DNA of 64,000 nt, taken from assembly GCF_003058225.1 (NCBI RefSeq), contig NZ_QBUG01000006.1, forward strand, positions 1 through 64,000, written 5' to 3'. The notes beneath the pieces were generated by a model that was given only the letters and a program-made list of their open reading frames with translations, ran no database searches and was not told the DNA's origin. The translations under genes were made by a program, and so were the position numbers. This DNA comes from Promicromonospora sp. AC04. Lineage in GTDB: Bacteria; Actinomycetota; Actinomycetes; Actinomycetales; Cellulomonadaceae. Every line of letters begins with the position of its first letter. Position 1 is the stretch's first letter. Of the stretch, positions 1,073 through 21,123 are shown in pieces.

Positions 1073-2494
1073 TCACGGCCTGACCGTGACCCCGACGGCG
1101 TTCCCCGGGCCGTCCCGGAACGTGAGCACCGCACCCGTCGTCGGCTCGGTCCAGGACGTGCCCGGCGCGAAGGGGGCGTCGTCGAGACCGTCCGCCGAGC
1201 CCGGCGTCGAGTCCACCACCCGGACCGGGCCCTCGCCCGACCGCACGGACGTGTCGACCGTGTAGACCAGCGCGCCGCTCGCGCCGATGGCCTCGTCGTA
1301 GCCGACGGGCTGCCGGTTCTCGACGACCACCGCGCGGGTGGCCGAGATCGGGTACACCAGCATCGTGTCCTGCCACGACGGCGCGTTTCCGGATCCCGCC
1401 ACCGGCCCCAGCCGCGCGGTGGTGGCCCGCCGCGGGTCGGCGCAGACCACCTGGGCGTCGTCGAGCCAGCCGAGCTGCCAGCGGTGCCAGGCGAAGTACT
1501 CCGGCCCCGAGCCCGAGATGAGGCCCATCAGGTCCCAGCCGCCGACCGCCGCATGCCAGTTGCCGGGATCCGACGGCGGCGCCTCGAACAGGTAGAGGTC
1601 GGGCAGGCCGAGCGTGTGCCCCGACTCGTGGGCCAGGACGAGCCCGCCCCAGCGCCACTGGTCGTAGCCGAACGTGACGGCGTGCGTGAGGTGGTTGTCG
1701 TCCGCCGTGACGTCCAGGAAGTTCGTCGTCGGCGAGTAGGTGATGTTCGGCGCCTCCTTCGTGGCCGTCACCCAGACGACGTCGACGTCGGAGAAGTCGA
1801 ACGTGGCGTCGGCGGCCGCTATGGCGTCGCCGATGTACCGCACGTGGTCCTCGTAGCTCAGCCCGCGCTCGAACGGGTACGACGTCGAGGGCTCGGGCAT
1901 CCGGACCCAGCCGTCCGACGACGTCGTGGTGACGTCGAGCCGTCCACCCGAGACTCGCTCCAGGTACTCGACCCCCGACGCGAGGTTGGTCTCCGCCTCG
2001 TCGAGCGAGCCGACGGCGGCCGGGTGGTCCTCGAAGTCCACGAAGAGCAGCGCCGCCTTGAGCGTGCCGACCGCCGGGAGCGCCTGGTCGTCGACCGGGA
2101 ACCCGGAGCCGAGGCCGTCGACGGCGGCGGGGAGCCGGCAGGTTGCCGCGGGTGGTGCCCCGGCGGGGGTGGCCCCGGTAGGGGCGGCCGCGACAGAGGT
2201 GGCCCCGGTAGGGGTGGCCGCGACAGGGGTGGCTGCGAGAGAGGTGGCTGCGAGAGGGGCGGCCGCGACAGGGGTGGCTGCGAGAGAGGTGGCTGCGAGA
2301 GGGGCGGCCCCGACAGAGGTGGCCCCGAGAGAGGTGGCCCCGAGAGAGACTTCGGACAGGTCGGTCGAGGCGCTCGCGGGAACCACGCCGAGGGCGAGGA
2401 CCGTCGCGGCCACGGCCGCGACCGGCAGGGCGAAGGACGGCAGGGCGAAAGACGGTCGGGCAAGGGGCGGTCGGGTGGCTCGCTTCTGGTGCAT
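1073..2494 (-). CDS. Secreted M6-family metalloprotease
   Basis: A 473-residue zinc endopeptidase of the M6 (immune-inhibitor-A-like) class. The start at ATG 2494 is chosen because GAAGGAG lies just upstream and a Sec signal follows (hydrophobic stretch ending ALGVVPASA, about residues 25-43). After the signal comes a Pro/Ala/Thr-rich tract of degenerate pentapeptides (about residues 49-115). The catalytic domain follows, with the zinc motif HESGHTLGLPD in LVLAHESGHTLGLPDLYLF and the GGWDLMG segment typical of M6 enzymes. It is the last gene of the leftward operon, 60 bp after the GH127 gene. The protein is probably secreted and could cut hydroxyproline-rich glycoproteins into importable peptides; that substrate is inferred from context only. 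Confidence 0.87.
   Translation of the reverse strand: MHQKRATRPPLARPSFALPSFALPVAAVAATVLALGVVPASASTDLSEVSLGATSLGATSVGAAPLAATSLAATPVAAAPLAATSLAATPVAATPTGATSVAAAPTGATPAGAPPAATCRLPAAVDGLGSGFPVDDQALPAVGTLKAALLFVDFEDHPAAVGSLDEAETNLASGVEYLERVSGGRLDVTTTSSDGWVRMPEPSTSYPFERGLSYEDHVRYIGDAIAAADATFDFSDVDVVWVTATKEAPNITYSPTTNFLDVTADDNHLTHAVTFGYDQWRWGGLVLAHESGHTLGLPDLYLFEAPPSDPGNWHAAVGGWDLMGLISGSGPEYFAWHRWQLGWLDDAQVVCADPRRATTARLGPVAGSGNAPSWQDTMLVYPISATRAVVVENRQPVGYDEAIGASGALVYTVDTSVRSGEGPVRVVDSTPGSADGLDDAPFAPGTSWTEPTTGAVLTFRDGPGNAVGVTVRP
2153..2349 (-). repeat. 15-bp tandem repeat tract encoding Ala/Thr/Pro pentapeptides
   Basis: About 13 head-to-tail degenerate 15-bp units (minus-strand reading of the GGGGTGGCCGCGACA type) encode pentapeptides such as SLGAT, PVAAT and PTGAT directly after the signal peptide of the M6 protease. 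Third positions are conserved between units, which suggests recent expansion by slippage. It probably forms a flexible linker, rich in Thr and Ser, that could be O-glycosylated. Confidence 0.8.
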
Positions 2495-2554
2495 GAGGTT
2501 CCAACTCCTTCGTTGTCGTGCTCGTGCGTGCTGCCCGGCGAACACGCCGGCGGG

Positions 2555-5290
2555 TCAGTCGGCGGGCGGGAGGACGAGGGTCCTCACGGGCTCCTCGTTG
2601 CCCGCCCGGTCGGTCGCGGCGAACTCGATGACCTGGGGCTCGTCGCCCAGCGCCCGGGTGAACGGCTCGCCGAAGGTGGCCCAGAACGTGTCCGGTCCCT
2701 TCCACCGGATGCTGTCCACGCCGGAGACGTCGTCGACGGCGGTGAGGTTGATCTCGACGCCGCGCGGGCCGAGGCGGCGGGCCGTGACCGTGGTCCGGGG
2801 CGGCTTGGTGTCGACGCTCACCTCGCGCACGACGCGGCGCTCGCGGCCCGCGCCGTCGACGGCGCGGGCGGTGACGGTGTGCACGCCGTCGCCCAGCACG
2901 AGCGGCGCGGGTCCGGCCGGAGCCCACGACGCGTCGCCGACCCGGATCTCGACGTGTGCCTCGCCGGCGTCGGCCCGGGCGGTGACGGTGAGCTCGGCGG
3001 GCCGGTGGTACCAGCCGGTGACGCTGGGCGCCGTGGCCGGGACGATCTCGATCCGCGGCGCGGACCCGGCGTGGGCGGCGGTGGGCGCCCTGGACAGGAG
3101 CGCGGCCTCGGCCGCGCGGGAGGCCTCGGGATCCTGGTCCGCATCGCGGCCGACGCCGGAGCGCGCGGCCGCCACCAGGACCCGCCGTGCCTCGTCGGCG
3201 CTGAGCAGCCCGACGTCCACGAACTCGTGCGTGGTGCTCAGCACCGTCCGGAGGAATTCGGCCCGGGACGCGAAGCCGCCGTCGGACCACAGGACGTCGA
3301 GGAACGTGCGGCCGTCCTCGCGCGCCGGGTTCGGCACGCCGGAGTCGGACTCGGCCTCGGAGCCGGTCCCAAGGTCGGCCCCGGAACCGGCCCGGACGTC
3401 GGCCCCAGGACCAACCCCGGCGAACGCGATCCGCGCATCCGCCCGCCGCAGGTACATGTGGTACCGCGCGTCGGACCCGGACCACGCCGGCTCCAGGACG
3501 AGGTCGCCCAGCCGCCACGTCCCGCCGTCGGCCCGGGTCAGCGGGACGTCGAGCGTCCCGTCGAGGCGCCGCCAGGTCGCCGCGGCGATCGGCAGCCAGG
3601 TGGTGGCGGCGCTGCGGGCGAGCAGGACGGTCGGCCCGAGCTCCAGGCTGACCACCGACGTGTCGTCGGGCGCCGGGACCTCGCGCAGCGTCAGCGGCAT
3701 GCTGATCTCGACCACCGTGCCCGGGCGCCAGAAACGCCGTATCGAGACGTAGTGTCCCGGGACCGCGTGCAGGGCCTGCGCCTCGCCGTCGACGGTCACG
3801 GTGAAGGCTGCCGTCGACCCGCCCGAGCCCATGACCCAGCCGGGCACCCGCAGCCGGAGCTCGAGCTCGCCGGCGGCGTCGACCCGGATCCTGCTCGTGC
3901 CCTCCAGGGGGTAGGAAGTCTCCTGGACGAGGCGGACGTCCTCCTCGGCCCAGCGCAGGGTCGAGGCCACGTAGAGGTTGACCCAGACCGTGCGGCCGGC
4001 GCCCCGGCGGGACCGGAAGTAGACGGAGTCCTGGTACTTGACGTGGTTCTCCAGCCCGGTGCCGCCGCAGCAGGTGCCGACGTTGTCGTACTCGCGCAGC
4101 GCCCCTGGGTGGACGGGGAACATGTACGTCACCTCGGGCGAGTCGTCGGAGTCGGCGTCGCGCCGCGACCCCAGGACCTGGTTGGTGACGGCCCGCTCGT
4201 AGTAGTCGGCGTAGCGCGCGTCGCCCGTGCGCTCGAACAGGGCGCGGGCGATCTTGAGCATGTTGTAGGTCACGCACGTCTCGGCGTTCCGGTTGCCGAT
4301 GTCACCCGCGACCGCGCCCGGCGGCCCCCAGAGCTCGTTCTCGCCCGAGCCGCCATGGGCGAAGGTGCGGCCGGGGACGAGCATGTCCCAGATGTTGCTG
4401 ACGGCGTCCAGGTACGACGTCTCGCCCGTGAGGTCGTGCAGCGCGAGGTAGCCCAGGAGCGTCGCGGCGTGCTGGTTGGCGTGCATGCCGTCGAGCGCGT
4501 CCCGGCCCGACGCCGCGGCGTCGAGCAGCGAGCCCAGGTCGAACAGGCGGGCGGTCTCCACGAACTGCTTGTCGCCGGTCAGCATCGCGAGGTCGCACAG
4601 GACCTCGTTCATGCCCCCGGTCTCGCCGGCGATGTACAGGGACCACATGTCAGTGCGCTGGTCCGCGGGCAGGGCCGAGAGCCGGCCGTGCACCCAGCGC
4701 CCCATCTCCGCGGCGACCTCCAGCGCGGCCTGCGATCCCGCGTGCCGGTGCGCGTCGAGCAGCCCGGCCATGATCTTGTGGCACGTGTAGTACGGCGCCC
4801 AGATCTCGCCGTACGGGGCCAGGCCCTCCAGGCGGGAGAACTGCCACTCGCCGTACGCCGCGAGGAACCCGGGATGGCTGTAGCGGCCCGACGCCGCCAG
4901 CGCCTCCTGGACCTCCCGCAGCCCCTCGACCATATCGTCGACCTTGGCCCGCAGTGCGGCGTCGCCCGTCCCGGCGTAGGCCATGGCCAGCATGGACAGG
5001 AAGTGGCCCGCGTAGTGGCCGCGCAGGAGGTTGGCCGTGGGGGCGGCCTCGCGGCCGGGGTAGTCGTCGGGACCCCACGCGTCCTCGTCCGGGTGGCCGA
5101 AGTCCTCCCAGCCGCCGGGCGGCAGGGCGCCGCGCGTGTCCAGGCCGGCATTCGCGCGGAAGACGGCGAGGACCCGGTCCACCGGGTAGACCCGCGCCAG
5201 GTGCAGCAGCTGGTCCCGGGCCCGCGTGAAGATGCCGTCGTGCAGCTCGACGGCGGAGAGCGGGAACGGCTCGGCGACGGCGTCGGACAT
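2555..5290 (-). CDS. GH127 (DUF1680) beta-L-arabinofuranosidase with C-terminal Ig-like domains
   Basis: A protein of 911 residues that most likely releases L-arabinose from beta-L-arabinofuranosides such as those on plant hydroxyproline. The (alpha/alpha)6 domain covers about residues 1-530. It carries the GH127 zinc site: Glu337 and Cys339 in NAETC, and Cys407-Cys408 in GTCCGG, at nearly the same numbers as in Bifidobacterium HypBA1 (338, 340, 417, 418); Cys407 would be the nucleophile. GENELWG near 320 matches the acid/base region. A beta domain follows, then a linker and two Ig-like modules (about 740-911). There is no signal peptide, so the enzyme should be cytoplasmic. The ATG overlaps the pepP-like stop by one base (TGATG); a GTG three bases upstream is an alternative start. 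Confidence 0.92.
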   Translation of the reverse strand: MSDAVAEPFPLSAVELHDGIFTRARDQLLHLARVYPVDRVLAVFRANAGLDTRGALPPGGWEDFGHPDEDAWGPDDYPGREAAPTANLLRGHYAGHFLSMLAMAYAGTGDAALRAKVDDMVEGLREVQEALAASGRYSHPGFLAAYGEWQFSRLEGLAPYGEIWAPYYTCHKIMAGLLDAHRHAGSQAALEVAAEMGRWVHGRLSALPADQRTDMWSLYIAGETGGMNEVLCDLAMLTGDKQFVETARLFDLGSLLDAAASGRDALDGMHANQHAATLLGYLALHDLTGETSYLDAVSNIWDMLVPGRTFAHGGSGENELWGPPGAVAGDIGNRNAETCVTYNMLKIARALFERTGDARYADYYERAVTNQVLGSRRDADSDDSPEVTYMFPVHPGALREYDNVGTCCGGTGLENHVKYQDSVYFRSRRGAGRTVWVNLYVASTLRWAEEDVRLVQETSYPLEGTSRIRVDAAGELELRLRVPGWVMGSGGSTAAFTVTVDGEAQALHAVPGHYVSIRRFWRPGTVVEISMPLTLREVPAPDDTSVVSLELGPTVLLARSAATTWLPIAAATWRRLDGTLDVPLTRADGGTWRLGDLVLEPAWSGSDARYHMYLRRADARIAFAGVGPGADVRAGSGADLGTGSEAESDSGVPNPAREDGRTFLDVLWSDGGFASRAEFLRTVLSTTHEFVDVGLLSADEARRVLVAAARSGVGRDADQDPEASRAAEAALLSRAPTAAHAGSAPRIEIVPATAPSVTGWYHRPAELTVTARADAGEAHVEIRVGDASWAPAGPAPLVLGDGVHTVTARAVDGAGRERRVVREVSVDTKPPRTTVTARRLGPRGVEINLTAVDDVSGVDSIRWKGPDTFWATFGEPFTRALGDEPQVIEFAATDRAGNEEPVRTLVLPPAD

Positions 5291-6759
5291 CACCGGGCGT
5301 CACCGATCCGCTCCTTCGTCCAGCGCTCGATGCCGGCGGCGTCGATCGGCAGCGCGTCCGAGAGTACCTCGGCGCCGTCGGGCGTGACCAGGAGGTCGTC
5401 CTCCAGGCGGACGCCGATGCCGCGCAGCTCGGGCGGCACGGTCTCGTCGTGCGCGTGGAAGTAGAGGCCGGGCTCGACGGTCATGACGACGCCCGGCTCC
5501 AGGGGAGCAGCCTGGTAGGTGGGGTAGTCCGAGTGGGCGCAGTCGTGCACGTCCAGACCGAGGTGATGGCCGATGCCGCAGACCAGCCAGCGCCGGTGCT
5601 GCTGACCCCCGGGCGACAGCGCCTCGTCGACCGAGACGTCCAGGAGCCCCCAGTCGTGCAGCCCCTGGGCGATGACCTCCATGGAGGCGTAGTGGAAGTC
5701 GAGGTACTCGACGCCCGGGCGGATCTGCGCCATGCCGGCGCGGTGCGCCTTCTCGACGAGGTCGTGCACCTGGCGCTGCACCGCGCTGAAGGCGCCCGAC
5801 GGCGGGATCGTCCGGGTCACGTCCGCGGTGTACAGGGAGTTGGCCTCGACGCCCATGTCCAGCAGCAGCGGCACGTCGGGCAGCACAGGGCCGTCGCAGC
5901 GCACCCAGTGCAGGGTCGGGGCGTGCGGTCCGGAGCCGACGATGGTCGAGTACCCCGGCCCGTTGCCGAACGTGCGGGCGTGCCGGTCGAACGTCCCCTG
6001 CAGCCAGCGCTCGCCCAGCCCGCCGATGGCGCGCGGCAGCTCGCCGGCAACCGCCTCGAACCCGGTCACCGTGTGGTCGACCGCCTCGCGCAGCTGGGTG
6101 ATCTCCCAGTCGTCCTTGATCATGCGCAGGTCCGACAGCGCGCGGGCGAGGTCCTCCGACGGCTTCAGGCCGAACCGGCGCACGGTCTCGTCGTCGACCG
6201 ACGGCGCGGCGAGCGCTCCGTCCAGCCTGGCGAGGACGCCGTCGAGCGCGGACAGCGGCTCGACGGCGATGTCAAACGCCTCCGCCCAGTCCCCCAGGTC
6301 GGGCGACGGCCCGACCCAGAGCTCGCCGTACGCCGCGTTCCCGAAGAACGCGCTGTCGCCCGGCTTGGCCGGCGGCGGCAGGTAGAGCGTGGCGTCGTGG
6401 CCGCCGTCGCTCGCCCGCAGGACGAGCACGCCGGCCTCGGCCTGCACCCCCGTGAGCCACACGAAGTCGCTGTCCGCGCGGAACCCGTACTGGACGTCGC
6501 CGTTGCGCAGGGCGGCGTGCCCCGCGCTCACCACGGCATCGACGGCCCCGATGCGCTCGGACAGCCGACGGCGGTGCGCGGCCGCGGCGGCCGGCCCACC
6601 GGGCGGCACGGGCACGACGACGTCGGGCGCGCCCCACCCGCGGGACATGTGGGCGTTGAACGCGTCGCTCTCGACCAGCCGGGGGGCACGCGTCCCGGCG
6701 TACGGGGGACGCTCCCGGTTGGTGTCTGGGCTGGTGGACGGGGTGGTGTGCGAGCTCAT
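5290..6759 (-). CDS. pepP: Xaa-Pro aminopeptidase (M24B)
   Basis: A 489-residue dinuclear-metal aminopeptidase that removes an N-terminal residue preceding proline. An AMP_N domain (about residues 45-200, with YGFRADSDFVWLTG) precedes the pita-bread domain. The metal ligands are visible: Asp in LLLDMGVE, Asp in YTADVTRT, His in GIGHHLGLDVHD, Glu in VEPGLYF and Glu in GVRLEDDLL. The start ATG 6759 has GAGGAGAG upstream and overlaps the previous stop (ATGA). No signal peptide, so it is cytoplasmic. It sits between the alpha/beta hydrolase and GH127 genes, which fits degradation of imported Pro/Hyp peptides. Confidence 0.93.
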   Translation of the reverse strand: MSSHTTPSTSPDTNRERPPYAGTRAPRLVESDAFNAHMSRGWGAPDVVVPVPPGGPAAAAAHRRRLSERIGAVDAVVSAGHAALRNGDVQYGFRADSDFVWLTGVQAEAGVLVLRASDGGHDATLYLPPPAKPGDSAFFGNAAYGELWVGPSPDLGDWAEAFDIAVEPLSALDGVLARLDGALAAPSVDDETVRRFGLKPSEDLARALSDLRMIKDDWEITQLREAVDHTVTGFEAVAGELPRAIGGLGERWLQGTFDRHARTFGNGPGYSTIVGSGPHAPTLHWVRCDGPVLPDVPLLLDMGVEANSLYTADVTRTIPPSGAFSAVQRQVHDLVEKAHRAGMAQIRPGVEYLDFHYASMEVIAQGLHDWGLLDVSVDEALSPGGQQHRRWLVCGIGHHLGLDVHDCAHSDYPTYQAAPLEPGVVMTVEPGLYFHAHDETVPPELRGIGVRLEDDLLVTPDGAEVLSDALPIDAAGIERWTKERIGDAR

Positions 6760-8090
6760 CTCTCTCCTCCTCGGTCGCGGACCAGCTCACGGAGGCGCTC
6801 CAGCACGCGCCCGTCGCCGATCCCGTCGTGCTCGTACTCGTTGGTGACCCATGCCTGGGACGACCCGACCCGCGAGAGCGTGTCGAGCTGCAGACCGGAG
6901 TCGACGAACATGTCGTCGTGGTAGACCACCGCGGCGACCGGCACCTCGTTGGCGGCCAGGCGGTCCAGGTCGTACAGCGGCGACCAGTCCTGGCGCGCCG
7001 CCAGCTCGTGCACGGCAGGTGCGAACGGCCGCAGGAGCCGCACCTCCTCGAACATCCAGGGGAACGCCATCTCGCCGGTGAACAGCAGCGGCCGTCGGGC
7101 CGGGTCGAACTCCGGACGGCGGTCCCGCTCCGCCTGCGCCGCCCAACCCGTCGGGCCGTTGGCGCCGTGGCCGTAGATCGACTCCTGCAGCGTCCAGAAC
7201 AGCGGGCCGTCCGCCTGCGACGTGCGCACCATCGCCTCCTGCAGGAACCCGGCCGACAGCCGGCCGGCCCGCACGAACGCCTTCTCGACGAACCAGTGCA
7301 TCCGCTCTGTGCCCGGCTTCATGCCCAGGTCGATCCCCATGGACTGGAACCGGCGGACGGTCAGCACGTCGCCGTCGGGCAGCCGGACGTCGCCCTCGGC
7401 GAGCCGGTCGGCGATCGTTGCGACCGCCTCGACGTCGGCCGGGTAGCGCCGGTAGAACTCGGCGGTGCGACCGGCGACCCGGCCGAACGTCCTGCGGTAG
7501 ACCTCCGCGGCGTCCGGCGGCGTGCCCGGCACACCCCCGGCGATGTAGCAGGCGCGGAGCGCCTCGGGCGCCACGGACAGGTAGGTGAGGGTGATCCAGC
7601 CGCCGAAGCTCTGCGCGAGTGTCGTCCACGGCCGCCCGCCGTACACCCGCGCCCGGACGTCCTCCAGGTCCGCGACCAGCGAGTCGGCCCGGAAGCACGC
7701 CAGCAGGTCCGCGCCCTCGCGGGCGCCGAGCCCGGCCAGCACCTCGCCGTCCAGCGGGCTGCTGCCGCCCGTGCCGCGCTGGTCGACCAGCACCACGCGG
7801 TAGTCGCGCAGCGCCACGTCCAGCCAGCCGTCCCGGCGCAGCGGCCGCGGGTTCGCGCCGCCCGGGCCGCCCTGCAGGTACACCAGCAGCGGCAGGTCGT
7901 CGTCGTCCCGCGTCGGGTCGACCAGCTCGCGGACCAGCAGCTCCACCTCGCCCGGCAGCCGGCCCGAACGGTCCAGCGGCACCGCGACACGGCGCTCGCG
8001 GACGCCGATTCCCGGCAGCAGGTACGTGGTCCAGGGGCTGGGTTCGATGCCCGCGGCCGTGCTCGTTGCCGTGCTCGTCACCGGGCTCAT
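6756..8090 (-). CDS. Alpha/beta hydrolase, prolyl iminopeptidase-like (S33)
   Basis: A 444-residue serine hydrolase. The start ATG 8090 overlaps the ATPase stop (ATGA). Motifs of the proline iminopeptidase family are in order: the oxyanion segment LQGGPGGANPR, then DQRGTGGSSP, then the nucleophile elbow AQSFGGW. The C-terminus carries the His in NEYEHDGIGDG. Such enzymes take N-terminal proline, or sometimes hydroxyproline, from small peptides. Placement between a peptide importer and an Xaa-Pro aminopeptidase supports that role; esterase activity cannot be excluded from sequence. No signal peptide is present. Confidence 0.87.
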   Translation of the reverse strand: MSPVTSTATSTAAGIEPSPWTTYLLPGIGVRERRVAVPLDRSGRLPGEVELLVRELVDPTRDDDDLPLLVYLQGGPGGANPRPLRRDGWLDVALRDYRVVLVDQRGTGGSSPLDGEVLAGLGAREGADLLACFRADSLVADLEDVRARVYGGRPWTTLAQSFGGWITLTYLSVAPEALRACYIAGGVPGTPPDAAEVYRRTFGRVAGRTAEFYRRYPADVEAVATIADRLAEGDVRLPDGDVLTVRRFQSMGIDLGMKPGTERMHWFVEKAFVRAGRLSAGFLQEAMVRTSQADGPLFWTLQESIYGHGANGPTGWAAQAERDRRPEFDPARRPLLFTGEMAFPWMFEEVRLLRPFAPAVHELAARQDWSPLYDLDRLAANEVPVAAVVYHDDMFVDSGLQLDTLSRVGSSQAWVTNEYEHDGIGDGRVLERLRELVRDRGGER

Positions 8091-8938
8091 GCCGGAGCCC
8101 CCGCCGAGCGGGCGGCGTTGGCTCGGCGCTGCCGTTCCCACTCGGGACGGATGCGCGGCACGGCGTCGAGCAGCTTGCGGGTGTACTCGTGGCGGGGCGC
8201 GCCGAAGACGCTGTCCCGGTCGCCCTCCTCGACGATCTGTCCCTGCGTCATCACGGCGACCCGGGTGGCGATCTGCCGCACCACCGCCAGGTCGTGCGCG
8301 ATGAACAGGTACGTCAGGCCCTCCTCGCGCTGCAGGTCGCGCAGCAGGTTGATCACCTGCGCCTGGACCGACACGTCCAGCGCCGAGACCGCCTCGTCGC
8401 ACACCACGACGCGCGGCCCGACCGCCAGCGCCCGGGCGATCCCGATGCGCTGCGCCTGCCCGCCGGAGAACTGCGCCGGGTACTTCTGCGAGTGGTCCGG
8501 GTCCAGCCCGACCCGCTCCATGAGCGACCGGGTGAAGGCGCGGGCGCCGCCCGGGACGGTCCGCTGCTGGTAGGTCAGGGGAGCGGTGACTATCCGCTCC
8601 ACCGTGTGTCGCGGGTTGAGCGAGGAGAACGGGTCCTGGAAGACGACCTGCACCTCGCTGCGGAATCTCCGCAGCTCGGAGCGCCCCAGCCCGGTGACGT
8701 CCTCGCCGTCGAGCTCGACGGTGCCCGAGGTGACGTCCAGCAGGCGTGCGGCGAGCCGCGCCGTCGTCGACTTGCCCGAGCCGGACTCGCCCACCAGGGC
8801 GAGCGTCTCGCCCGCGCGGATCTCGAAGCTCACGTCGTCCACTGCCCGGAACGTGGCCGGACGGCGCAGCAGGCCGCCCGTGCCCATGATGGGGAACTCC
8901 TTGACGAGGTTGGTGGCTCTCAGGAGCGGCTCGCTCAT
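8087..8938 (-). CDS. dppF: Peptide ABC transporter ATP-binding protein, DppF/OppF type
   Basis: A 283-residue ATPase starting at ATG 8938 (ATGA overlap with the preceding gene). Walker A GESGSGKST, the signature FSGGQAQRIGIARAL, Walker B VVVCDEAVSALD and the H-loop FIAHDLAVV are all present. The C-terminus has the oligopeptide-importer extension (GAPRHEYTRKLLDAVP). It pairs with the ATPase encoded just upstream to power the two permeases. The rightmost end of the operon encodes the binding protein. Confidence 0.93.
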   Translation of the reverse strand: MSEPLLRATNLVKEFPIMGTGGLLRRPATFRAVDDVSFEIRAGETLALVGESGSGKSTTARLAARLLDVTSGTVELDGEDVTGLGRSELRRFRSEVQVVFQDPFSSLNPRHTVERIVTAPLTYQQRTVPGGARAFTRSLMERVGLDPDHSQKYPAQFSGGQAQRIGIARALAVGPRVVVCDEAVSALDVSVQAQVINLLRDLQREEGLTYLFIAHDLAVVRQIATRVAVMTQGQIVEEGDRDSVFGAPRHEYTRKLLDAVPRIRPEWERQRRANAARSAGAPA

Positions 8939-13625: not shown

Positions 13626-13747
13626 TACTGATCGAGAACAACGGTGTCGATGGGGTGAATGTAAACGTCAAGTTTCGGCGGCATCAGGCCACTTCTAGGG
13701 TCTCGTGCCCCGGCGTCGGCGGCCGCGCTCAGGTACCCTCAGGCGCA

Positions 13748-13783
13748 TTGACGATGGGATTCCCGTCTCGTGTAATATTCTAC
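13748..13783 (+). promoter_or_regulatory. Promoter of the GntR gene with an embedded dyad
   Basis: A -35-like TTGACG at 13748-13753 is followed 17 bp later by TGTAAT (13771-13776), overlapping TAATAT. The element GTAATATTCTAC at 13772-13783 is an imperfect dyad (GTA-n6-TAC) covering the -10 box. Such a position suits autoregulation by the GntR protein encoded 30 bp downstream. Confidence 0.45.
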
Positions 13784-13813: not shown

Positions 13814-14494
13814 ATGAGCACGGCATCACCAACCCCGTCGGTCCGTCGTCTTCCGCCGGTCGCGAGCCTGCGCGAGCAGGTTCACCGCGCCCTCGTGGCG
13901 GCGATCGTCGCGGGCGAGCTGGAGCCCGGTGAGCTTGTCTCCGTACCGACCCTCGCCGCGCGCTTCGACGTGTCGGCGACGCCGGTGCGGGAGGCCGTGC
14001 TGGACCTGGAGCGGCGGGGATTCCTCGAGGCCGTGCGGAACAAGGGATTCCGCGTCACTCGCGTCAGCGACCAGACGCTGCGGCATGTCGCCGCCGTCCG
14101 CCTCGTGATCGAGCCGGTCTGGATGGAGCGGCTGGCCAAGTCGTTCCCGGTGGGGCAGCTGGGGGAGTTCCGCGCGCTGGCCGACGAGATAGTCGAGGGC
14201 GCGCGCACGGGCGACCTGATCGCCTACCTGCAGGCGGACCAGGCGTTCCACCTGCGGCTCATGGGGCTGCTCGGCAACCCCGTCGCCGGCGAGATCGTGG
14301 CCGACCTGCGGGACAGGGCGCGCCTGCTCGGGCTGTCGACGATGGTCGCGAGTGGCACGCTGGCCAGCTCTGCCCAGGAGCACCACGAGCTGCTCGACCT
14401 GCTTGCGGCCGGGGACGGCCCCGGTGCAAAGGCGCTCATGGAGCGGCACATCGGGCACTCGCTGGGCACGTGGGCGGGCAAGCCGGAGGACTGA
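13814..14494 (+). CDS. GntR-family (FadR/FCD) transcriptional regulator
   Basis: A 226-residue regulator starting at ATG 13814 with CCAGGAG upstream. The winged helix-turn-helix covers about residues 18-82 (LREQVHRALVAAIVAGELEPG, cut to LREQVHRALVAAIV, then TPVREAVLDLERRGFL). The FCD ligand domain follows, with likely metal ligands Asp and His in QADQAFHLRL, His in QEHHELLDLL and His in MERHIGHSL. It sits between the peptide-import operon and the hydroxyproline catabolic operon and most likely controls both in response to a pathway metabolite. 47 bp separate it from the next gene. Confidence 0.92.
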   Translation: MSTASPTPSVRRLPPVASLREQVHRALVAAIVAGELEPGELVSVPTLAARFDVSATPVREAVLDLERRGFLEAVRNKGFRVTRVSDQTLRHVAAVRLVIEPVWMERLAKSFPVGQLGEFRALADEIVEGARTGDLIAYLQADQAFHLRLMGLLGNPVAGEIVADLRDRARLLGLSTMVASGTLASSAQEHHELLDLLAAGDGPGAKALMERHIGHSLGTWAGKPED

Positions 14495-14541: not shown

Positions 14542-15753
14542 ATGATCGAGAGGGTGGATGTGGCAGCGGACGTCGTGATCGTCGGCGCCGGGATAGTCGG
14601 CGCCGCGTGCGCGCGCGCCCTCGCGCGGGCCGGTGCCCGGGTGACGGTGCTCGACCGCGTGGCAGCGGCGTCCGCCACCAGCGCCCACGGCGAGGGCAAC
14701 CTGCTGGTCTCCGACAAGGGCCCCGGCCCGGAGCTGGAGCTGGCCAAGGTGTCCCTGCGCCGGTGGGCGCATCTCGCCGACGAGCTGGCGGACGAGCTCG
14801 GGCCGCTGTTCCCCTCGATCGAGCACGAGGCCAAGGGCGGCCTGGTCGTGGTCACCTCCGCCGACGGCCTGGACGGGCTGCGCGGGTTCGCCGAGGCGCA
14901 GCGCGCGGCCGGCGTCGAGGCCGTCGAGGTGACCGCCGAGCAGGCGCGCGAGCTCGAGCCCGACCTGGCCCCCGGCGTCGTCGGCGCCGTGTACTACCCG
15001 CAGGACGCGCAGGTGCAGCCGGTGGCCGCCGCCGAGGCGCTGCTCGCCTCCGCGCGCCGGGCAGGCGCCGTCGTCCGCACCGAGGTCGAGGTGACCGGAC
15101 CGCTGCTGGGCGACGGCGGTCGCCTCACCGGCGTCGCCACCACGCGGGGCGAGGTCTCCGCCGGCGCCGTGGTCGTGGCGGCGGGCCCCTGGTCGGCGGA
15201 GGTCGCAGAGAGGCTCGGCGCCCGGATCGCGGTGCGCCCGCGCCGCGGGATGGTGCTCGTCACCACCCCGATGCGGCAGCGAGTCCGGCACAAGGTCTAC
15301 GACGGCGACTACTTCGCGGCCACCCAGTCCGCGGGCGCCGAGCTGCAGACGTCCGCCGTGATCGAGTCGACGCGGGGCGGGACCGTGCTGATCGGGTCGA
15401 GCCGGGAGCAGGTGGGATTCGACGATCGCCTGAGCACCCAGGTGCTCGCCCAGCTGGCGCGGCGGGCTGTTGCCGTGTTCCCGTTCCTGGCGCGGACGAA
15501 CGTCATGCGCTCCTACCTCGGCTTCCGGCCGTACATGCCCGACCATCTCCCGGTGATCGGCCCCGACCCGGCCCTTCCCGGGCTGTGGTTCGCGACCGGT
15601 CACGAGGGCGCGGGCGTCGGGCTGGCCCCGGCGACCGGGGACCTGCTCGCCGCCGGGATGCTGGGGCTGGCGGCGGCCGTGGACCCGCGCCCGTACGCCG
15701 TCGACCGGCCGACGCTCCGGCCGAGGGTTGCTCACGGGGAGGCACTGGCATGA
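14542..15753 (+). CDS. FAD-dependent D-hydroxyproline dehydrogenase, DAO-type subunit
   Basis: A 403-residue flavoprotein with the N-terminal dinucleotide fold (DVVIVGAGIVGAACARAL, residues about 9-26, then VTVLDR) and the DAO-family C-terminus (FRPYMPDHLPVIGPDP and ATGHEGAGVGLAPATG). It resembles HcnC/LhpB-type subunits. With the next two genes it forms a three-part dehydrogenase that should oxidise cis-4-hydroxy-D-proline to 1-pyrroline-4-hydroxy-2-carboxylate. The start ATG 14542 gives the fold at the expected position. Glycine, sarcosine or D-proline oxidation are alternatives for the isolated protein, but the downstream genes favour hydroxyproline. Confidence 0.88.
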   Translation: MIERVDVAADVVIVGAGIVGAACARALARAGARVTVLDRVAAASATSAHGEGNLLVSDKGPGPELELAKVSLRRWAHLADELADELGPLFPSIEHEAKGGLVVVTSADGLDGLRGFAEAQRAAGVEAVEVTAEQARELEPDLAPGVVGAVYYPQDAQVQPVAAAEALLASARRAGAVVRTEVEVTGPLLGDGGRLTGVATTRGEVSAGAVVVAAGPWSAEVAERLGARIAVRPRRGMVLVTTPMRQRVRHKVYDGDYFAATQSAGAELQTSAVIESTRGGTVLIGSSREQVGFDDRLSTQVLAQLARRAVAVFPFLARTNVMRSYLGFRPYMPDHLPVIGPDPALPGLWFATGHEGAGVGLAPATGDLLAAGMLGLAAAVDPRPYAVDRPTLRPRVAHGEALA

Positions 15754-16088
15754 CGTCGCAGCGCATAGCGGTGGAGCGGGACCCCGTCGAACCGGGTCCC
15801 GACCGGCCACTGACCATCTGGGTCGACGGCGAGCCCGTCACCGGGACGGCCGGGCAGACGATCGCCGGCGTGCTGCTGGGTGCCGGACGGCGCCAGTGGC
15901 GCACCACCCGCGAGGGCGGCGCGCCCCGCGGCGTGTTCTGCGGGATCGGCGTGTGTTTCGACTGCCTCGTCGAGGTCAACGGCCTGCCGGACGTGCGGGC
16001 CTGCCTGCGGCGCGCGCAGGACGGCGACGTCGTGGCCGACCAGGGCGCTCCGCCGTCGGGCGGGTCGCTGCCGGAGGTGACGTCGTGA
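15750..16088 (+). CDS. (2Fe-2S)-binding subunit of the D-hydroxyproline dehydrogenase
   Basis: A 112-residue HcnA-like ferredoxin-fold protein, start ATG 15750 overlapping the previous stop (ATGA). It contains the plant-type cluster ligands in GVFCGIGVCFDCLV plus a later Cys in VRACLRRAQ. The GQTIAGVLLGAGRRQWR segment is typical of this subunit. It carries electrons between the two flavoprotein subunits encoded on either side. Confidence 0.9.
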   Translation: MTSQRIAVERDPVEPGPDRPLTIWVDGEPVTGTAGQTIAGVLLGAGRRQWRTTREGGAPRGVFCGIGVCFDCLVEVNGLPDVRACLRRAQDGDVVADQGAPPSGGSLPEVTS

Positions 16089-17524
16089 GCAAGGGTTTGC
16101 GGCACGTCGTCGTCGTGGGCGCGGGCCCGGCGGGGCTGGCCGCCGCGCGGGCGGCTGCGGAGGCCGGGGCGCGGGTCACGCTGCTCGACGCCGCGGACGG
16201 CCTCGGCGGCCAGTACTGGCGGCACCTGCCCGCCGCGCGGCCGGCGGGGCGCGAGCACGTGCTGCACCATCGCTGGTCGACGTTCGGCGAGCTGAGCGGC
16301 GCCCTGCGGGCGAACCCGGCCGTGACGGTGGTGGAGTCGGCGCAGGTCTGGTCGCTCGAACGGCCGGACGGCGGCATCCGCCTGAATGTGCTCGTCGGGG
16401 AACCGGACGCCGTCGGGCGCGCGGTCCTGGTGCTGGAGCCGGACGCCCTGGTGCTGGCCACCGGCGCCCACGACCGGACGCTCCCGTTCCCCGGCTGGCA
16501 GCTGCCCGGGGTCTACTCTGCCGGGGCGGCGCAGGCGCTGGCCAAGGGGGAGCGGGTCGCCGTCGGGCGCCGGGTGGTCGTCGCCGGGGCCGGGCCCTTC
16601 CTGCTCCCCGTCGCGTCGGCGCTGCTGTGGACCGGCGCCACCGTCGTCGGCGTGCACGAGGCAGCCGGGCCGGGTGCGCTCGCGCGCGGCTGGCTGAGCC
16701 GGCCCTGGGAGCTGGCCGGCGCGGCGGGCAAGGCCGGTGAGCTGGCCGGATACGTCGGCGAGCTGGCGCGGCACCGCGTGCCGTGGCGGCCCGGCGAGGC
16801 AGTGGTTGCCGCGCACGGCGACGGGCAGGTCGAGGCGGTGACGATCGCCCGCCTGGACGAGCGCTGGGCGCCCGTTGCAGGTACCGAGCGGCAGGTCGAG
16901 GCCGACGCCGTGTGCGTGAGCCACGGCTTCACCCCGCGCCTCGAGCTGGCGGTCGCCGCCGGGTGCGCGCTCTCGCCGAGCCGGTTCGTGGTCGTCGACG
17001 ACGCGCAGGCCACGTCCGTCCCGGGCGTGTGGGCCGCCGGCGAGATCACGGGCATCGGCGGGGCCGACGCCGCGCTCGCCGAGGGCGCCGTCGCGGGCAC
17101 GGCGGCCGCCGGGGGCGACCTCGGCGTCGTCCGCGTCGCCGTCCGCGCCCGGGCCAGGGCCCGCGGCTTCGCCGCCCGCATCGAGGCCGCCCACGGCGTG
17201 CGCGGCGGGTGGGTGCGCTGGCTGCGCGACGACACCGTCGTCTGCCGCTGCGAGGAGACCACCTACGGGCGCGTGCGCGAGGTCGTCGAGCTCACCGGGT
17301 CGCACGAGACCCGCTCCGTGAAGCTCACCAGCCGCGCCGGGCTCGGCCCGTGCCAGGCGCGGATGTGCGGCCGGACCCTCCAGGAGCTGCTCGGGGACGC
17401 ACCCGGCGGCGACTCGGATGCGGGCGGCACCGCGCCCGGCGTCGACCGCCGTCCGCTCGTGGTGCCGGTCCGGCTCGGTGACCTCGCATCCCTGCCTTCG
17501 ACCTCTGCCTCTACCTCACCTTGA
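16085..17524 (+). CDS. FAD/NAD(P)-binding subunit with C-terminal BFD-like [2Fe-2S] domain
   Basis: A 479-residue HcnB-like oxidoreductase starting at GTG 16085 (GTGA overlap). The N-terminal Rossmann fold VVVVGAGPAGLAAARAAAEAG, abbreviated GAGPAGLAAA, is followed by the second nucleotide site VVVAGAGPFLLPVASAL. The C-terminal cluster domain has CRCEE and GPCQARMCG. It is the third part of the D-hydroxyproline dehydrogenase. The last 40 residues are low-complexity (LPSTSASTSP) and run into a tandem repeat, so the natural C-terminus may have drifted by repeat expansion. Confidence 0.88.
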   Translation: MSKGLRHVVVVGAGPAGLAAARAAAEAGARVTLLDAADGLGGQYWRHLPAARPAGREHVLHHRWSTFGELSGALRANPAVTVVESAQVWSLERPDGGIRLNVLVGEPDAVGRAVLVLEPDALVLATGAHDRTLPFPGWQLPGVYSAGAAQALAKGERVAVGRRVVVAGAGPFLLPVASALLWTGATVVGVHEAAGPGALARGWLSRPWELAGAAGKAGELAGYVGELARHRVPWRPGEAVVAAHGDGQVEAVTIARLDERWAPVAGTERQVEADAVCVSHGFTPRLELAVAAGCALSPSRFVVVDDAQATSVPGVWAAGEITGIGGADAALAEGAVAGTAAAGGDLGVVRVAVRARARARGFAARIEAAHGVRGGWVRWLRDDTVVCRCEETTYGRVREVVELTGSHETRSVKLTSRAGLGPCQARMCGRTLQELLGDAPGGDSDAGGTAPGVDRRPLVVPVRLGDLASLPSTSASTSP

Positions 17525-17537
17525 GCCTTGCTCTCGA

Positions 17538-18528: not shown

Positions 18529-18556
18529 CCCGGCCGGACCGAGCACAGGAGCGACC

Positions 18557-19558
18557 ATGCGCAGCAGCAGGACCATCACCGCCGTCGACTCGCACACGGA
18601 GGGCATGCCGACGCGCGTCGTCACCGGCGGCGTCGGGCCCATACCGGGCGAGACGATGAACGACAAGCGGCTGTACTTCATGGAGCACATGGACGAGCTG
18701 CGGCACTTCCTGATGGACGAGCCGCGCGGGCACGGCGCGATGAGCGGCGCCATCCTGCAGCCGCCCACGCGGCCCGACTGCGACTGGGGCGTGGTCTACA
18801 TCGAGGTGTCCGGCTGCCTGCCCATGTGCGGGCACGGCACCATCGGCGTCGCCACGGTCCTGGTCGAGACGGGCATGGTCGACGTCGTCGAGCCCGTGAC
18901 CGAGATCAGGCTGGACACGCCCGCCGGGCTCGTCGTCGCGAAGGTCGCCGTCAGCGACGGCCACGCGGACGCCGTGACCATCGAGAACGTGCCCAGCTTC
19001 GTGACGGCCCTCGACCAGACGATCGAGGTGCCCGGCTACGGCACCGTCCCGTACTCGATGGCGTTCGGCGGCAACTTCTACGCGCTCGTCGACCTGGACG
19101 ACCTGAAGCTGCCCTTCGACCGGGCGCGCCAGCAGGACCTGCTCGCCGCCGGGCTCGCGATCATGGACGCGATCAACGAGACCGCGAAGCCCAAGCACCC
19201 GGAGCTCGACGGCGTCGAGGGCTGCCACCACGTCGAGCTGATCGCCCCCGGCTCGGACGCCCGCCACTCCCGCCACGCCATGGCCATCTGGCCCGGCTGG
19301 TTCGACCGGTCGCCCTGCGGCACCGGGACGTCGGCCCGGATGGCCGAGCTCTGGGCCCGCGGCGAGCTCGCGATCGGCGACGACTTCGTCAACGAGTCGT
19401 TCATCGGCAGCCGGTTCGTCGGCCGGCTGGTCTCCGAGACCACGGTCGCGGGCGTGCCCGCCGTCGTGCCGACCATCACGGGGCGGGCCTGGGTGACCGC
19501 GACCGCCAACTACCTGCTCGACCCGAGCGACCCGTTCCCCACGGGCTTCGTCTTCTGA
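18557..19558 (+). CDS. 4-hydroxyproline 2-epimerase (proline racemase family)
   Basis: A 333-residue PLP-independent epimerase. Both catalytic thiols are present: Cys91 in PMCGHGTIG and Cys254 in SPCGTGTSA. This separates it from trans-3-hydroxyproline dehydratases, which have Ser or Thr at the first site. The start ATG 18557 has AGGAG upstream. It should convert trans-4-hydroxy-L-proline to cis-4-hydroxy-D-proline, the entry step for the dehydrogenase encoded upstream. Proline racemase activity is the alternative; the operon argues for hydroxyproline. Confidence 0.92.
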   Translation: MRSSRTITAVDSHTEGMPTRVVTGGVGPIPGETMNDKRLYFMEHMDELRHFLMDEPRGHGAMSGAILQPPTRPDCDWGVVYIEVSGCLPMCGHGTIGVATVLVETGMVDVVEPVTEIRLDTPAGLVVAKVAVSDGHADAVTIENVPSFVTALDQTIEVPGYGTVPYSMAFGGNFYALVDLDDLKLPFDRARQQDLLAAGLAIMDAINETAKPKHPELDGVEGCHHVELIAPGSDARHSRHAMAIWPGWFDRSPCGTGTSARMAELWARGELAIGDDFVNESFIGSRFVGRLVSETTVAGVPAVVPTITGRAWVTATANYLLDPSDPFPTGFVF

Positions 19559-19611
19559 ACCTGCTTGCTCGACCCGCCCGCCCTGCCCGTCATCCGCTGA
19601 GGAGCCCATCC

Positions 19612-21123
19612 ATGACCGCCACCGCGGCACCCGACCTCGATCGCACCGTCGACGACGTCGCCCGCCGGGCCGCCGACGCCTTCGACCAGCTGTCCCGGAC
19701 GGCGCCCCGCGTGCGCGCCGAGGGCCTGCGCGGCGCGGCCGCCGCCCTGGCCGACCACGCGGACGAGCTGGTCGCCATCGCCCAGGAGGAGACCGGCCTC
19801 GCCGAGGCGCGGCTGCGCGGCGAGCTCAAGCGCACCCAGGTCCAGCTCCGCCTGTTCGCGCACGTCGCGGAAGACGGCACCTACCTCGACGCCCGCGTCG
19901 ACGAGGCCGACCCGGACTTCGTCCTCGGCCCGCGGCCCGACCTGCGCCGCCTGCTGTGGCCGGTGGGGCCTGTGCTGAACTTCGCGGCGAGCAACTTCCC
20001 GTTCGCGTTCTCCGTGGCCGGCGGGGACACCGCGGCGGCGCTCGCGGCGGGCTGCCCGGTGATCGTCAAGGCGCACCCGGGGCATCCGCGGCTGTCCGAG
20101 CGCGTCGCGGAGCTCGTGGCCGCCGCGCTCGTCGCGGCGGGGCTGCCCGAGGGCACGCTGCAGCTCGTGACTTCGCAGGAGGCGGGCGTCGCCCTGGTCG
20201 AGCACCCGGCGGTGCGGGCGGCGGCCTTCACCGGGTCCCAGCGGGTCGGGCAGCTGCTCGCCGCCCGGGCCGCCGCGCGGCCCGACCCGATCCCGTTCTT
20301 CGGCGAGCTGGGCAGCGTCAACCCCGTCCTCGTGACCGGGGAGGCGCTGCGCGAGCGCGGCGACGGCCTGCTCGGCGGTTACGTGGCGAGCGTGTCCGGC
20401 TCGGCCGGCCAGCTCTGCACCAAGCCCGGTTTCCTGCTGGTCCCCGAGGGCTCCGCCTACGACGACGCAGTGGTCGCCGCAGCCTCGGAGGTACCCGTGC
20501 ACCGGTTGCTCAACCCGTCGATCGCGGACGGGTACGAGCGGCGGGTCACGGAGGCGCTGGGGGCGGACGGCGTGCGGGTTGTGCACTCCGGCGACTTCCG
20601 CCGCGACGCCGAGGGGCAGGCCTGGGTGAGGCCCACGTTCGTCGCCGTGCCGCTCGACGCGCTGCGCCGCGCGGGGGCCGCGCTGCTCGACGAGGTGTTC
20701 GGGCCGTTCTCCGTGATCGTGGAGTACCCGGACGGCACGGACCTGGCGGCCGTCGTCGCCGAGCTGTTCCCCGGCAACCTGACCCTGACCCTGCACCTGG
20801 GGTCGGGGGAGGCGGCCGGGGAGCAGGGCACGCCCGGTGGGTTCGGCGGGTTGGTGACCCGGCTGGCCCCGCACGCGGGCCGCATCCTGCTCGGCGGCTG
20901 GCCCACCGGCGTCGCCGTCACGCCCGCGATGCAGCACGGCGGCCCCTGGCCGGCGACGACCACCGACGGGACGTCGGTCGGCACCGCGGCGATCGGCCGG
21001 TTCCTGCGCGGGGTCACGTTCCAGGACGCGCCCCAGGAGCTGCTGCCCCCGGCGCTACGCGACGACAACCCCTGGGGCGTGCCCCGGACGGTCTCCGTGC
21101 GCGGGGAGTCGCTGGGGTGGTGA
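19612..21123 (+). CDS. 2-oxoglutarate-semialdehyde dehydrogenase (ALDH family)
   Basis: A 503-residue aldehyde dehydrogenase whose catalytic Cys269 is in SAGQLCTKPG and general-base Glu232 in FFGELGSVNP; the nucleotide region shows PVGPVLNFAASNFPFAFS (about 112-129). It matches the NADP+-type class that oxidises 2-oxoglutarate semialdehyde, the last step of hydroxyproline breakdown, giving 2-oxoglutarate for the TCA cycle. The start ATG 19612 follows TGAGGAG. It is the last gene of the rightward operon and is followed by a very strong hairpin. Confidence 0.91.
   Translation: MTATAAPDLDRTVDDVARRAADAFDQLSRTAPRVRAEGLRGAAAALADHADELVAIAQEETGLAEARLRGELKRTQVQLRLFAHVAEDGTYLDARVDEADPDFVLGPRPDLRRLLWPVGPVLNFAASNFPFAFSVAGGDTAAALAAGCPVIVKAHPGHPRLSERVAELVAAALVAAGLPEGTLQLVTSQEAGVALVEHPAVRAAAFTGSQRVGQLLAARAAARPDPIPFFGELGSVNPVLVTGEALRERGDGLLGGYVASVSGSAGQLCTKPGFLLVPEGSAYDDAVVAAASEVPVHRLLNPSIADGYERRVTEALGADGVRVVHSGDFRRDAEGQAWVRPTFVAVPLDALRRAGAALLDEVFGPFSVIVEYPDGTDLAAVVAELFPGNLTLTLHLGSGEAAGEQGTPGGFGGLVTRLAPHAGRILLGGWPTGVAVTPAMQHGGPWPATTTDGTSVGTAAIGRFLRGVTFQDAPQELLPPALRDDNPWGVPRTVSVRGESLGW

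What the first reader, a model, noticed from the sequence alone, without database searches (positions are those of the whole stretch)
1073..21123. A complete utilisation locus for arabinosylated hydroxyproline peptides (extensin-type glycoproteins)
Two divergent operons around one GntR gene join functions rarely seen as one unit. The leftward one has a secreted M6 protease, peptide importer, Xaa-Pro aminopeptidase, prolyl-iminopeptidase-like hydrolase and GH127 beta-L-arabinofuranosidase. The rightward one has all steps from trans-4-hydroxy-L-proline to 2-oxoglutarate. Hyp linked to beta-L-arabinofuranose occurs mainly in plant extensins and related glycoproteins. Sequence motifs support each enzyme; the link into one pathway is inferred from gene order.
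Basis: partly seen in the sequence, partly recalled or inferred. Interest (0 to 1): 0.9.

Follow-up and report, generated by a model that had tools for sequence, protein, structure and literature searches.

The report
Operon for eating arabinosylated hydroxyproline peptides
A soil actinobacterium carries a gene unit, which probably lets it import sugar-decorated hydroxyproline peptides from plant cell walls and burn both the sugar and the amino acid, and versions of this unit turn up in many other actinobacteria.

Summary
At 1073-21123 two divergent operons flank a GntR(FCD) gene: peptide importer, S33, M24, beta-L-arabinofuranosidase and secreted M6 protease leftward; a predicted trans-4-hydroxyproline route rightward. 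Correction: the glycosidase is GH146, not GH127; GH146 includes enzymes reported to cleave Araf-beta-Hyp. Comparisons support the link. Nine of 13 genus genomes carry this GH146, seven with the locus in one piece. Three Promicromonospora, Krasilnikoviella and Isoptericola have a GH127 in the same operon. Of 75 loci of that GH127 clade, 73 have the same peptide SBP beside it. The clade's GH127 is within 35 kb of a Hyp epimerase in 31 of 70 genomes, against 2 of 121 other GH127 copies. A palindromic operator-like site recurs at both halves in some genera. Likely mechanism: secreted protease, import of still-glycosylated peptides, cytosolic de-arabinosylation, peptidases, Hyp to 2-oxoglutarate. 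Substrates are inferred; no biochemistry was done. Against a strict unit: 4 of 13 genus genomes lack the GH146. New variant of known kinds, widespread rather than rare.

The parts
1073..2545 (-). secreted M6-family metalloprotease, motif HESGHTLGLPD, N-terminal signal sequence
   Evidence: TIGR03296 123.5 bits > cut-off 110.8; signal sequence read by eye; last gene of the leftward operon; found in 6 of the 9 genus genomes with the GH146, not in G187, G189, G194
2555..5293 (-). GH146 beta-L-arabinofuranosidase, cytosolic form (no signal peptide); Zn/Cys residues in ETCVTYNML and TCCGGTGLENH; C-terminal Ig/OmpL47-like domain
   Evidence: PF07944 3.8e-77; PDB best 5opj, 8k7y, 8k7x; OmpL47 domain model; clade of 9 locus enzymes 100/100
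5290..6759 (-). M24 aminopeptidase P (Xaa-Pro/Xaa-Hyp aminopeptidase)
   Evidence: PF00557 2e-40, PF05195 1.2e-15
6756..8090 (-). S33-type alpha/beta hydrolase, prolyl-iminopeptidase-like
   Evidence: PF00561 6.4e-13; TIGR01249 8e-7, 28.5 bits against a cut-off of 259.75; start chosen by the 4-bp overlap
8087..8938 (-). peptide ABC importer ATPase (OppF-type)
   Evidence: PF00005, PF08352; coordinates
8935..9822 (-). peptide ABC importer ATPase (OppD-type)
   Evidence: sequence; 75-93% identical orthologs in the same slot; coordinates; no family scan of its own
9819..10811 (-). peptide importer permease (OppB-type)
   Evidence: PF00528, PF19300
10811..11800 (-). peptide importer permease (OppC-type)
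   Evidence: PF00528, PF12911
11804..13507 (-). peptide-type solute-binding lipoprotein (SBP_bac_5), first gene of the leftward operon
   Evidence: PF00496 4e-82; lipobox-like LAAC read
13617..13628 (+). operator-like palindrome GTGATATGTTAC, overlaps the -10 of a promoter-like site for the leftward operon (13650-13622, -)
13772..13783 (+). operator-like palindrome GTAATATTCTAC, contains the TAATAT of a putative rightward -10
   Evidence: TTGACG-19-TAATAT read by eye, not found by the scan
13814..14494 (+). GntR-family FCD regulator
   Evidence: PF00392, PF07729
14542..15753 (+). DAO-type flavoprotein subunit, predicted D-hydroxyproline dehydrogenase
   Evidence: PF01266 2.8e-71
15750..16088 (+). 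small ferredoxin-like subunit, predicted part of the D-Hyp dehydrogenase
   Evidence: frame; orthologs in the same slot 70-86%; coordinates; [2Fe-2S] nature judged from the sequence by eye
16085..17524 (+). Pyr_redox_2/Fer2_BFD subunit of the predicted D-Hyp dehydrogenase
   Evidence: PF07992, PF04324
17611..18528 (+). DHDPS-family enzyme, predicted pyrroline-4-hydroxy-2-carboxylate deaminase
   Evidence: PF00701 6.1e-47; function from position in the operon only
18557..19558 (+). predicted 4-hydroxyproline 2-epimerase (two catalytic Cys; Ser and His at the discriminating sites)
   Evidence: PF05544 2.1e-128; alignment to 1w61 read with PMC1964878
19612..21123 (+). aldehyde dehydrogenase, predicted 2-oxoglutarate semialdehyde dehydrogenase
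   Evidence: PF00171 1.8e-42; coordinates; substrate from position only

Best explanation
The locus is a regulon for using peptides that carry hydroxyproline-O-beta-L-arabinofuranose. Inferred sequence of events: a secreted M6 protease cuts plant Hyp-rich glycoprotein; a peptide-type (not sugar-type) ABC importer takes up short, still arabinosylated peptides; the cytosolic GH146 removes beta-L-Araf from Hyp; the M24 aminopeptidase P and the S33 prolyl-iminopeptidase-like enzyme take apart the Xaa-Hyp/Hyp-Xaa peptides; free trans-4-L-Hyp goes by 2-epimerase, D-Hyp dehydrogenase, deaminase and semialdehyde dehydrogenase to 2-oxoglutarate; L-arabinose is used through AraA encoded elsewhere. The FCD-GntR represses both operons from two palindromes that overlap the -10 regions until a Hyp-derived effector appears. 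Shown here: gene content, tight operon, conserved linkage, exchange between the glycosidase families GH146 and GH127 in one operon, shared operator-like sites. Inferred: substrates, direction of regulation, effector.
For: Gene content and 1-4 bp overlaps from oppC to GH146. GH146 is the family of XeHypBA1 (mainly Araf-beta-Hyp) and Bll4HypBA1 (Araf-beta-Hyp): PMC10850190 section 18 and passages; PMC6085000 passages (that paper still files XeHypBA1 under GH127). This GH146 in 9 of 13 genus genomes, epimerase in 13 of 13. A GH127 sits between SBP and GntR in G186, G188, G189 beside GH146, and in G137 and G145, where the GH146 query gave no hit at 1e-30 (Pfam on two of the five; PDB search on one, best 4qjy 1e-104, 3wkw 9e-87). 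GH127 clade: 73 of 75 loci have the SBP, 71 each OppB, OppC and OppD, 70 OppF, 70 S33 or M24. Epimerase within 35 kb in 31 of 70 genomes for this clade against 2 of 121 other GH127 copies in the 74 genomes searched (Fisher p 5e-14). Operator-like sites: 2 exact in the 306-bp gap and no other with up to 1 mismatch in 64 kb, expected 0.15; 3 exact in the genome; in 72 loci of other genera 25 sites against 0.37 expected, 17 near starts of these genes. The nine locus GH146s have no signal peptide and form one clade (100/100); 23 of the 24 other GH146 rows match my Tat-like pattern. Epimerase has Ser and His where proline racemase has Phe102 and Cys270.
Against: No activity, growth or expression data. 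GH146 also acts on beta-1,2 and beta-1,3 Araf in arabinan and AGP, and in one of two paralog neighbourhoods examined a Tat-type GH146 lies by a GH43. No GH43/GH121 in the locus to trim Ara4/Ara3-Hyp. Four of 13 genus genomes lack the GH146 yet keep Hyp genes; P. soli (G189) keeps only 36 residues of S33. In 28 of 75 GH127-operon loci no Hyp gene lies in the flank of at most 10 kb; in 39 of 70 genomes no epimerase is within 35 kb (some are contig ends, and L076 has an epimerase piece in its flank that one search missed). Mere presence of an epimerase does not discriminate: it is in 69 of 70 operon-type genomes and also in 3 of 4 genomes of loci without the operon. 54 of 72 loci outside the genus have no operator-like site. 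For the epimerase the best NCBIfam model is proline racemase (356.6 bits) just ahead of 4-Hyp epimerase (344.4), both under their cut-offs, and the best PDB chain is a proline racemase. S33 and the DHDPS-type enzyme are named by family and context only; no equivalog cut-off is met.
Confidence: 0.72

Rival explanations
1. Sugar first, outside: the peptide is de-arabinosylated outside the cell; the importer takes bare Hyp/Pro peptides and the cytosolic glycosidase acts on imported arabino-disaccharides, as in Bifidobacterium longum.
For: B. longum HypBA1 is intracellular and acts on imported beta-Ara2 (PMC7263609 passages); G188 has a second, Tat-type GH146 in tandem.
Against: The co-encoded importer is a peptide-family system (SBP_bac_5, OppB/C/D/F), not a sugar SBP, and is beside the GH127 clade in 73 of 75 loci; no sugar importer or GH121 among the Pfam hits of the locus.
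Confidence: 0.17
2. Two neighbouring but independent functions: a general Pro/Hyp-peptide and Hyp-use operon pair that happens to carry a glycosidase for another plant beta-Araf glycan (arabinan, AGP, RG-II).
For: GH146 enzymes with arabinan/AGP activity exist; Hyp genes occur without the peptide half in G185, G191, G195.
Against: Glycosidase start overlaps the M24 stop; recurrent linkage with two different families; signal peptide absent in the locus clade; aceric acid hydrolase model scores 59 bits of 950 needed.
Confidence: 0.08
3. A collagen/gelatin peptide locus: Hyp comes from animal collagen and the glycosidase is irrelevant.
For: Secreted protease plus Xaa-Pro peptidases plus Hyp catabolism would also suit gelatin (inference).
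Against: Collagen Hyp is not arabinosylated (general knowledge); a beta-L-arabinofuranosidase-family gene lies with the importer in 73 of 75 loci (the loci were found through that gene, so this shows a stable pairing, not its frequency among all such importers).
Confidence: 0.03

Closest known systems
Bifidobacterium longum HypAA-HypBA2-HypBA1 system with a beta-Ara2 sugar importer (PMC7263609, passages)
   Same: beta-L-arabinofuranosidase of clan GH-P working in the cytosol on sugars from Hyp-rich glycoproteins, linked to an ABC importer
   Different: there a GH121 cuts off beta-Ara2 outside and a sugar importer takes the disaccharide; the passages seen say nothing of Hyp use. Here the importer is of the peptide family and a Hyp pathway is attached
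Xanthomonas euvesicatoria XeHypBA1/BA2/AA (PMC6085000, passages)
   Same: GH146-type enzyme acting on Araf-beta-Hyp; a (broken) prolyl oligopeptidase gene lies next to the cluster in that paper
   Different: enzymes extracellular; 'transporter' and 'catabol' have 0 occurrences in that text; organism reported unable to use L-arabinose
trans-4-hydroxyproline catabolic clusters with 4Hyp epimerase (PMC4113996, term search only; PMC1964878 for the epimerase, passages)
   Same: epimerase, D-Hyp dehydrogenase, DHDPS-type deaminase, semialdehyde dehydrogenase (the pathway is recalled general knowledge)
   Different: 'arabino', 'glycos' and 'DUF1680' have 0 occurrences in PMC4113996
Latescibacteria in-silico scheme for extensin use (PMC4454575, passages)
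   Same: GH127 proposed for extensin arabinose, oligopeptide uptake listed separately
   Different: no linked locus and no Hyp pathway in the passages seen

Membership tests
GH146 (clan GH-P) | closer by sequence to characterised GH146 than to GH127 | tested here: met
   5opj 8e-70, 8k7y 2e-54, 8k7x 4e-54 against 6ex6 2e-21 and GH127 4qjy 7e-17. That 5opj is BT0349 and 8k7x/8k7y Bll3HypBA1 is recalled; PMC10850190 gives both as the GH146 structures
GH146 (clan GH-P) | Cys3-Glu zinc site with Cys nucleophile | tested here: met
   E-T-C and C-C align with 5opj and 8k7y; residue roles from PMC10850190 section 21
GH146 (clan GH-P) | beta-L-arabinofuranosidase activity on Araf-beta-Hyp | not testable with these tools
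   needs recombinant enzyme
GH127 | GH127-type ETCAAIG and CACCPPN motifs (my own reading of the operon GH127s) and C-terminal domain PF20737 | tested here: not met
   absent in the window enzyme; present in the operon GH127 of P. soli
4-hydroxyproline 2-epimerase | two catalytic Cys; Ser/Val instead of Phe102 and His instead of Cys270 | tested here: met
   alignment to 1w61 read; the third element (R3) was not resolved
4-hydroxyproline 2-epimerase | NCBIfam 4-hydroxyproline epimerase cut-off | tested here: not met
   NF010578 344.4 bits against 376; proline racemase model 356.6 against 556
trans-4-Hyp degradation pathway | epimerase, D-Hyp dehydrogenase subunits, deaminase and semialdehyde dehydrogenase families in one operon | tested here: met
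   families, order; the substrates of the enzymes are by context
M6 metalloprotease | TIGR03296 over cut-off, HExxHxLGLPD | tested here: met
   Pfam M6 model below its cut-off; the motif is recalled
HypBA-type beta-arabino-oligosaccharide system of B. longum | GH121 arabinobiosidase and sugar importer | tested here: not met
   no such family among the Pfam hits at 1073-21123
aceric acid hydrolase (RG-II) | NF049879 over cut-off | tested here: not met
   59 bits against 950

The most novel reading that the evidence does not exclude
A widespread actinobacterial regulon imports intact arabinosylated Hyp glycopeptides and takes apart both halves in the cytosol, with two glycosidase families (GH127, GH146) exchanged within one operon and a shared operator tying glycopeptide uptake to Hyp catabolism. 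If the importer is not choosy, rhizosphere actinobacteria would also scavenge plant arabinosylated signal peptides (CLE- or PSY-type), an unrecognised microbial sink for them.
Probability: 0.45. Interest if true: 0.8.

Novelty: new variant of a known kind. Interest (0 to 1): 0.62.

Why it matters
Extensin-type glycoproteins are abundant and resistant parts of plant walls, and the bacterial systems described in the papers I read (B. longum, X. euvesicatoria) concern the sugar. This unit predicts how soil and plant-associated actinobacteria recover the carbon and nitrogen of the peptide as well. It names a testable glycopeptide importer, a cytosolic glycopeptide deglycosylation step and a short operator motif, and it gives a functional label to a GH127 clade found with the same peptide importer across many genera.

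Tried and rejected
Rejected: GH127 label for the window enzyme; RG-II aceric acid hydrolase; rarity of the locus. The third exact operator match in the genome, C7:43588, lies in a stretch whose frames look like glycolysis and whiA-type genes by eye (no family scan), and is taken as chance. A first palindrome and GT-N-AC scan for the operator found nothing in the window gap; the motif was then taken from the alignment and the G191 palindrome. Papers: ten searches for this gene combination and passages or sections of PMC10850190, PMC7263609, PMC6085000, PMC4454575, PMC1964878, PMC8424115 and a term search in PMC4113996; none of what I saw shows a Hyp catabolic operon with a beta-L-arabinofuranosidase and a peptide importer. 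Most papers appeared to me as listings only; subscription papers and preprints are not held, so prior description cannot be excluded. Not done: structure prediction and fold search; comparison with the sequences of Bll4HypBA1 and XeHypBA1, which I did not have.
Full report
What is there. The window is the start of contig C6 of a 6.85 Mb genome. Two operons diverge from a 306-bp gap. The leftward one runs SBP, OppC, OppB, OppD, OppF, S33, M24, glycosidase, M6; from oppC to the glycosidase neighbours overlap by 1-4 bp, and M6 starts 9 bp after the glycosidase. The rightward one starts with a GntR-FCD regulator followed by a predicted three-subunit D-Hyp dehydrogenase, a DHDPS-type enzyme, a Pro_racemase-family enzyme and an aldehyde dehydrogenase. 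The Pro_racemase-family enzyme has both catalytic Cys, Ser in place of TcPRAC Phe102 and His in place of Cys270, which PMC1964878 gives as marks of hydroxyproline epimerase against proline racemase (passages). On the other side, its best NCBIfam model is proline racemase (356.6 bits) ahead of 4-hydroxyproline epimerase (344.4), both under their cut-offs, and its best PDB chain is a proline racemase.

The glycosidase. Pfam's PF07944 covers GH127 and GH146. By sequence the window enzyme is GH146 (that 5opj is BT0349, 8k7x/8k7y Bll3HypBA1 and 3wkw HypBA1 is recalled). PMC10850190 (outline and abstract, sections 18, 21, 23 and passages) reports GH146 members with different tastes: Bll3HypBA1 on beta-1,3-Araf, BT0349 on arabinan-derived substrates and beta-1,2-arabinobiose, XeHypBA1 mainly on Araf-beta-Hyp, Bll4HypBA1 on Araf-beta-Hyp. 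So the family label fits the proposed role, but does not prove it. In a tree of 33 GH146 rows the nine locus enzymes form one clade (100/100), and none of them has a signal sequence. Of the 24 other rows, 23 match my Tat-like pattern and the 24th (second copy of G192) looks shifted in frame upstream. Two paralog neighbourhoods were scanned: one Tat-type GH146 lies by a GH43 (G174), the other (G192) by a protein with F5/8-type domains. I read this as a secreted enzyme recruited once into the cytosolic operon.

Conservation in the genus. The epimerase is in 13 of 13 genus genomes and in 16 of 221 family genomes. A GH146 of at least 75% identity is in 9 of 13 genus genomes: seven with the locus in one piece (the window, G186, G189, G190, G192, G193, G194) and two over broken contigs (G187, G188). 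Against a strict unit: G185 keeps only a GH146 tail of about 365 bp beside GntR; G191 and G195 show no importer, peptidase or glycosidase gene of the operon in the 25 and 40 kb searched; G184 has no GH146 hit and a contig end. G191 also lacks the three D-Hyp dehydrogenase genes at that place. P. soli (G189) keeps only 36 residues of S33. M6 is in 6 of the 9; in its slot G137 and G145 have a secreted HEXXH protein with no peptidase-family hit (family scans on the G137 protein).

Exchange of the glycosidase. In G186, G188 and G189 a GH127 lies between SBP and GntR, together with GH146. In Krasilnikoviella flava (G137) and Isoptericola sp. 4D.3 (G145), which gave no GH146 hit at E 1e-30, the GH127 is there without it. 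The five are 59-84% identical to the first; two were scanned with Pfam and one against the PDB. Two families of one clan with the same kind of activity thus alternate or coexist in one operon, which is hard to explain unless beta-L-Araf removal is part of its work. HypBA1-type GH127 acts on Ara-Hyp to Ara3-Hyp, XeHypBA1 mainly on Ara-Hyp (PMC6085000 passages), so the pair could be complementary (inference).

Spread. A scan of 84,980 species genomes with the five operon GH127 proteins, through two short peptide patterns and so leaning to close relatives, returned the best 80 of 94 loci. Five of the 80 (L144, L145, L147, L148, L150; 40-43% identity) have none of the operon genes at my identity thresholds and were set apart. 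Of the other 75, 73 have the SBP, 71 each OppB, OppC and OppD, 70 OppF, and 70 S33 or M24; 47 have at least one Hyp gene inside the flank of at most 10 kb and 28 do not; the two without SBP end at contig ends. They include Streptomyces, Nonomuraea, Kribbella, Terrabacter, Plantibacter, Agromyces, Leifsonia, Clavibacter and Acidipropionibacterium. The genomes of 74 of the 80 loci were searched further (not those of L071-L073, L075, L077, L150). An epimerase is present in 72 (39 of 40; 33 of 34): 69 of 70 operon-type genomes and 3 of the 4 others, so presence alone does not discriminate. Nearness does: the operon-type GH127 is within 35 kb of an epimerase in 31 of 70 genomes; of 121 other GH127 copies found in the 74 genomes, 2 are, both in G232, where they are nearer to it than the operon copy is (p 5e-14). 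The cut of 35 kb was set with the data in view; the remaining 39 are over 200 kb apart, on other contigs or without an epimerase. In many genomes only part of the candidates was scored, so the 121 may be incomplete; and L076 has an epimerase piece in its flank that one search missed, so 31 is a lower bound. The 72/74 against 16/221 comparison computed is not matched for taxonomy and I put no weight on it.

Regulation. The palindromes at 13617-13628 and 13772-13783 are conserved in all five aligned genus intergenic regions. The pattern GTRATATNYTAC with up to one mismatch occurs only there in the window (expected 0.15) and exactly three times in the genome; since the pattern was taken from this gap, these two counts are partly circular. 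A more independent test: the perfect form from G191 (GTAATATATTAC), with up to two mismatches, in 72 loci of other genera gave 25 sites in 18 loci against 0.37 sites expected from base neighbours, 17 of them from -400 to +50 of starts of these genes. In six loci (L120, L126, L128, L130, L131, L140) sites lie both by the GH127 and by the Hyp half some 10 kb away; in some of these the site is at or just inside the extrapolated GH127 start. 54 of the 72 loci have no site, so the motif is not general. The one promoter-like match in the first 20 kb has its -10 over the left palindrome. I infer repression by the FCD regulator; the effector is unknown.

Verdict. The step that is least certain is whether the peptide is imported with its sugar on; the peptide-type importer tied to a cytosolic glycosidase is the main reason to think so.

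Noticed in passing
G137 C6:598755-600773 and G145 C14:463285-465312 (-), in L066/L062 and L067/L064: Secreted 672-675 aa proteins with VHEFGHA sit where Promicromonospora has M6; the G137 one has a ricin-type lectin domain and an OmpL47-type domain and no peptidase family hit in Pfam or NCBIfam.
   Followed up: partly
L036:4423-6465 (G188 C51): Tandem GH146: the cytosolic locus enzyme is followed by a second, Tat-type GH146 (56%) and then M6 in the same direction.
   Followed up: partly
L055 (G191 C1:780265-783018): The Hyp operon of this genome lacks the three D-Hyp dehydrogenase genes between GntR and the DHDPS-type gene.
   Followed up: no
L034/L035 (G189 C8:166118-166225): P. soli keeps only a 36-residue piece of S33 between M24 and oppF.
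   Followed up: no
window 21352-25584: Right of the locus: epoxide-hydrolase-like gene, TetR, an S15/PepX_C protein and a flavodoxin; the first three are also together beside the locus in G188, the first in some others.
   Followed up: no
window 34417-37722: A large RND-family efflux protein (ACR_tran) beside a MarR regulator in an actinobacterium.
   Followed up: no
L034:11070-13937 (G189): A GH2 beta-galactosidase gene converges on the GH146 end of the operon in P. soli, where others have M6.
   Followed up: no
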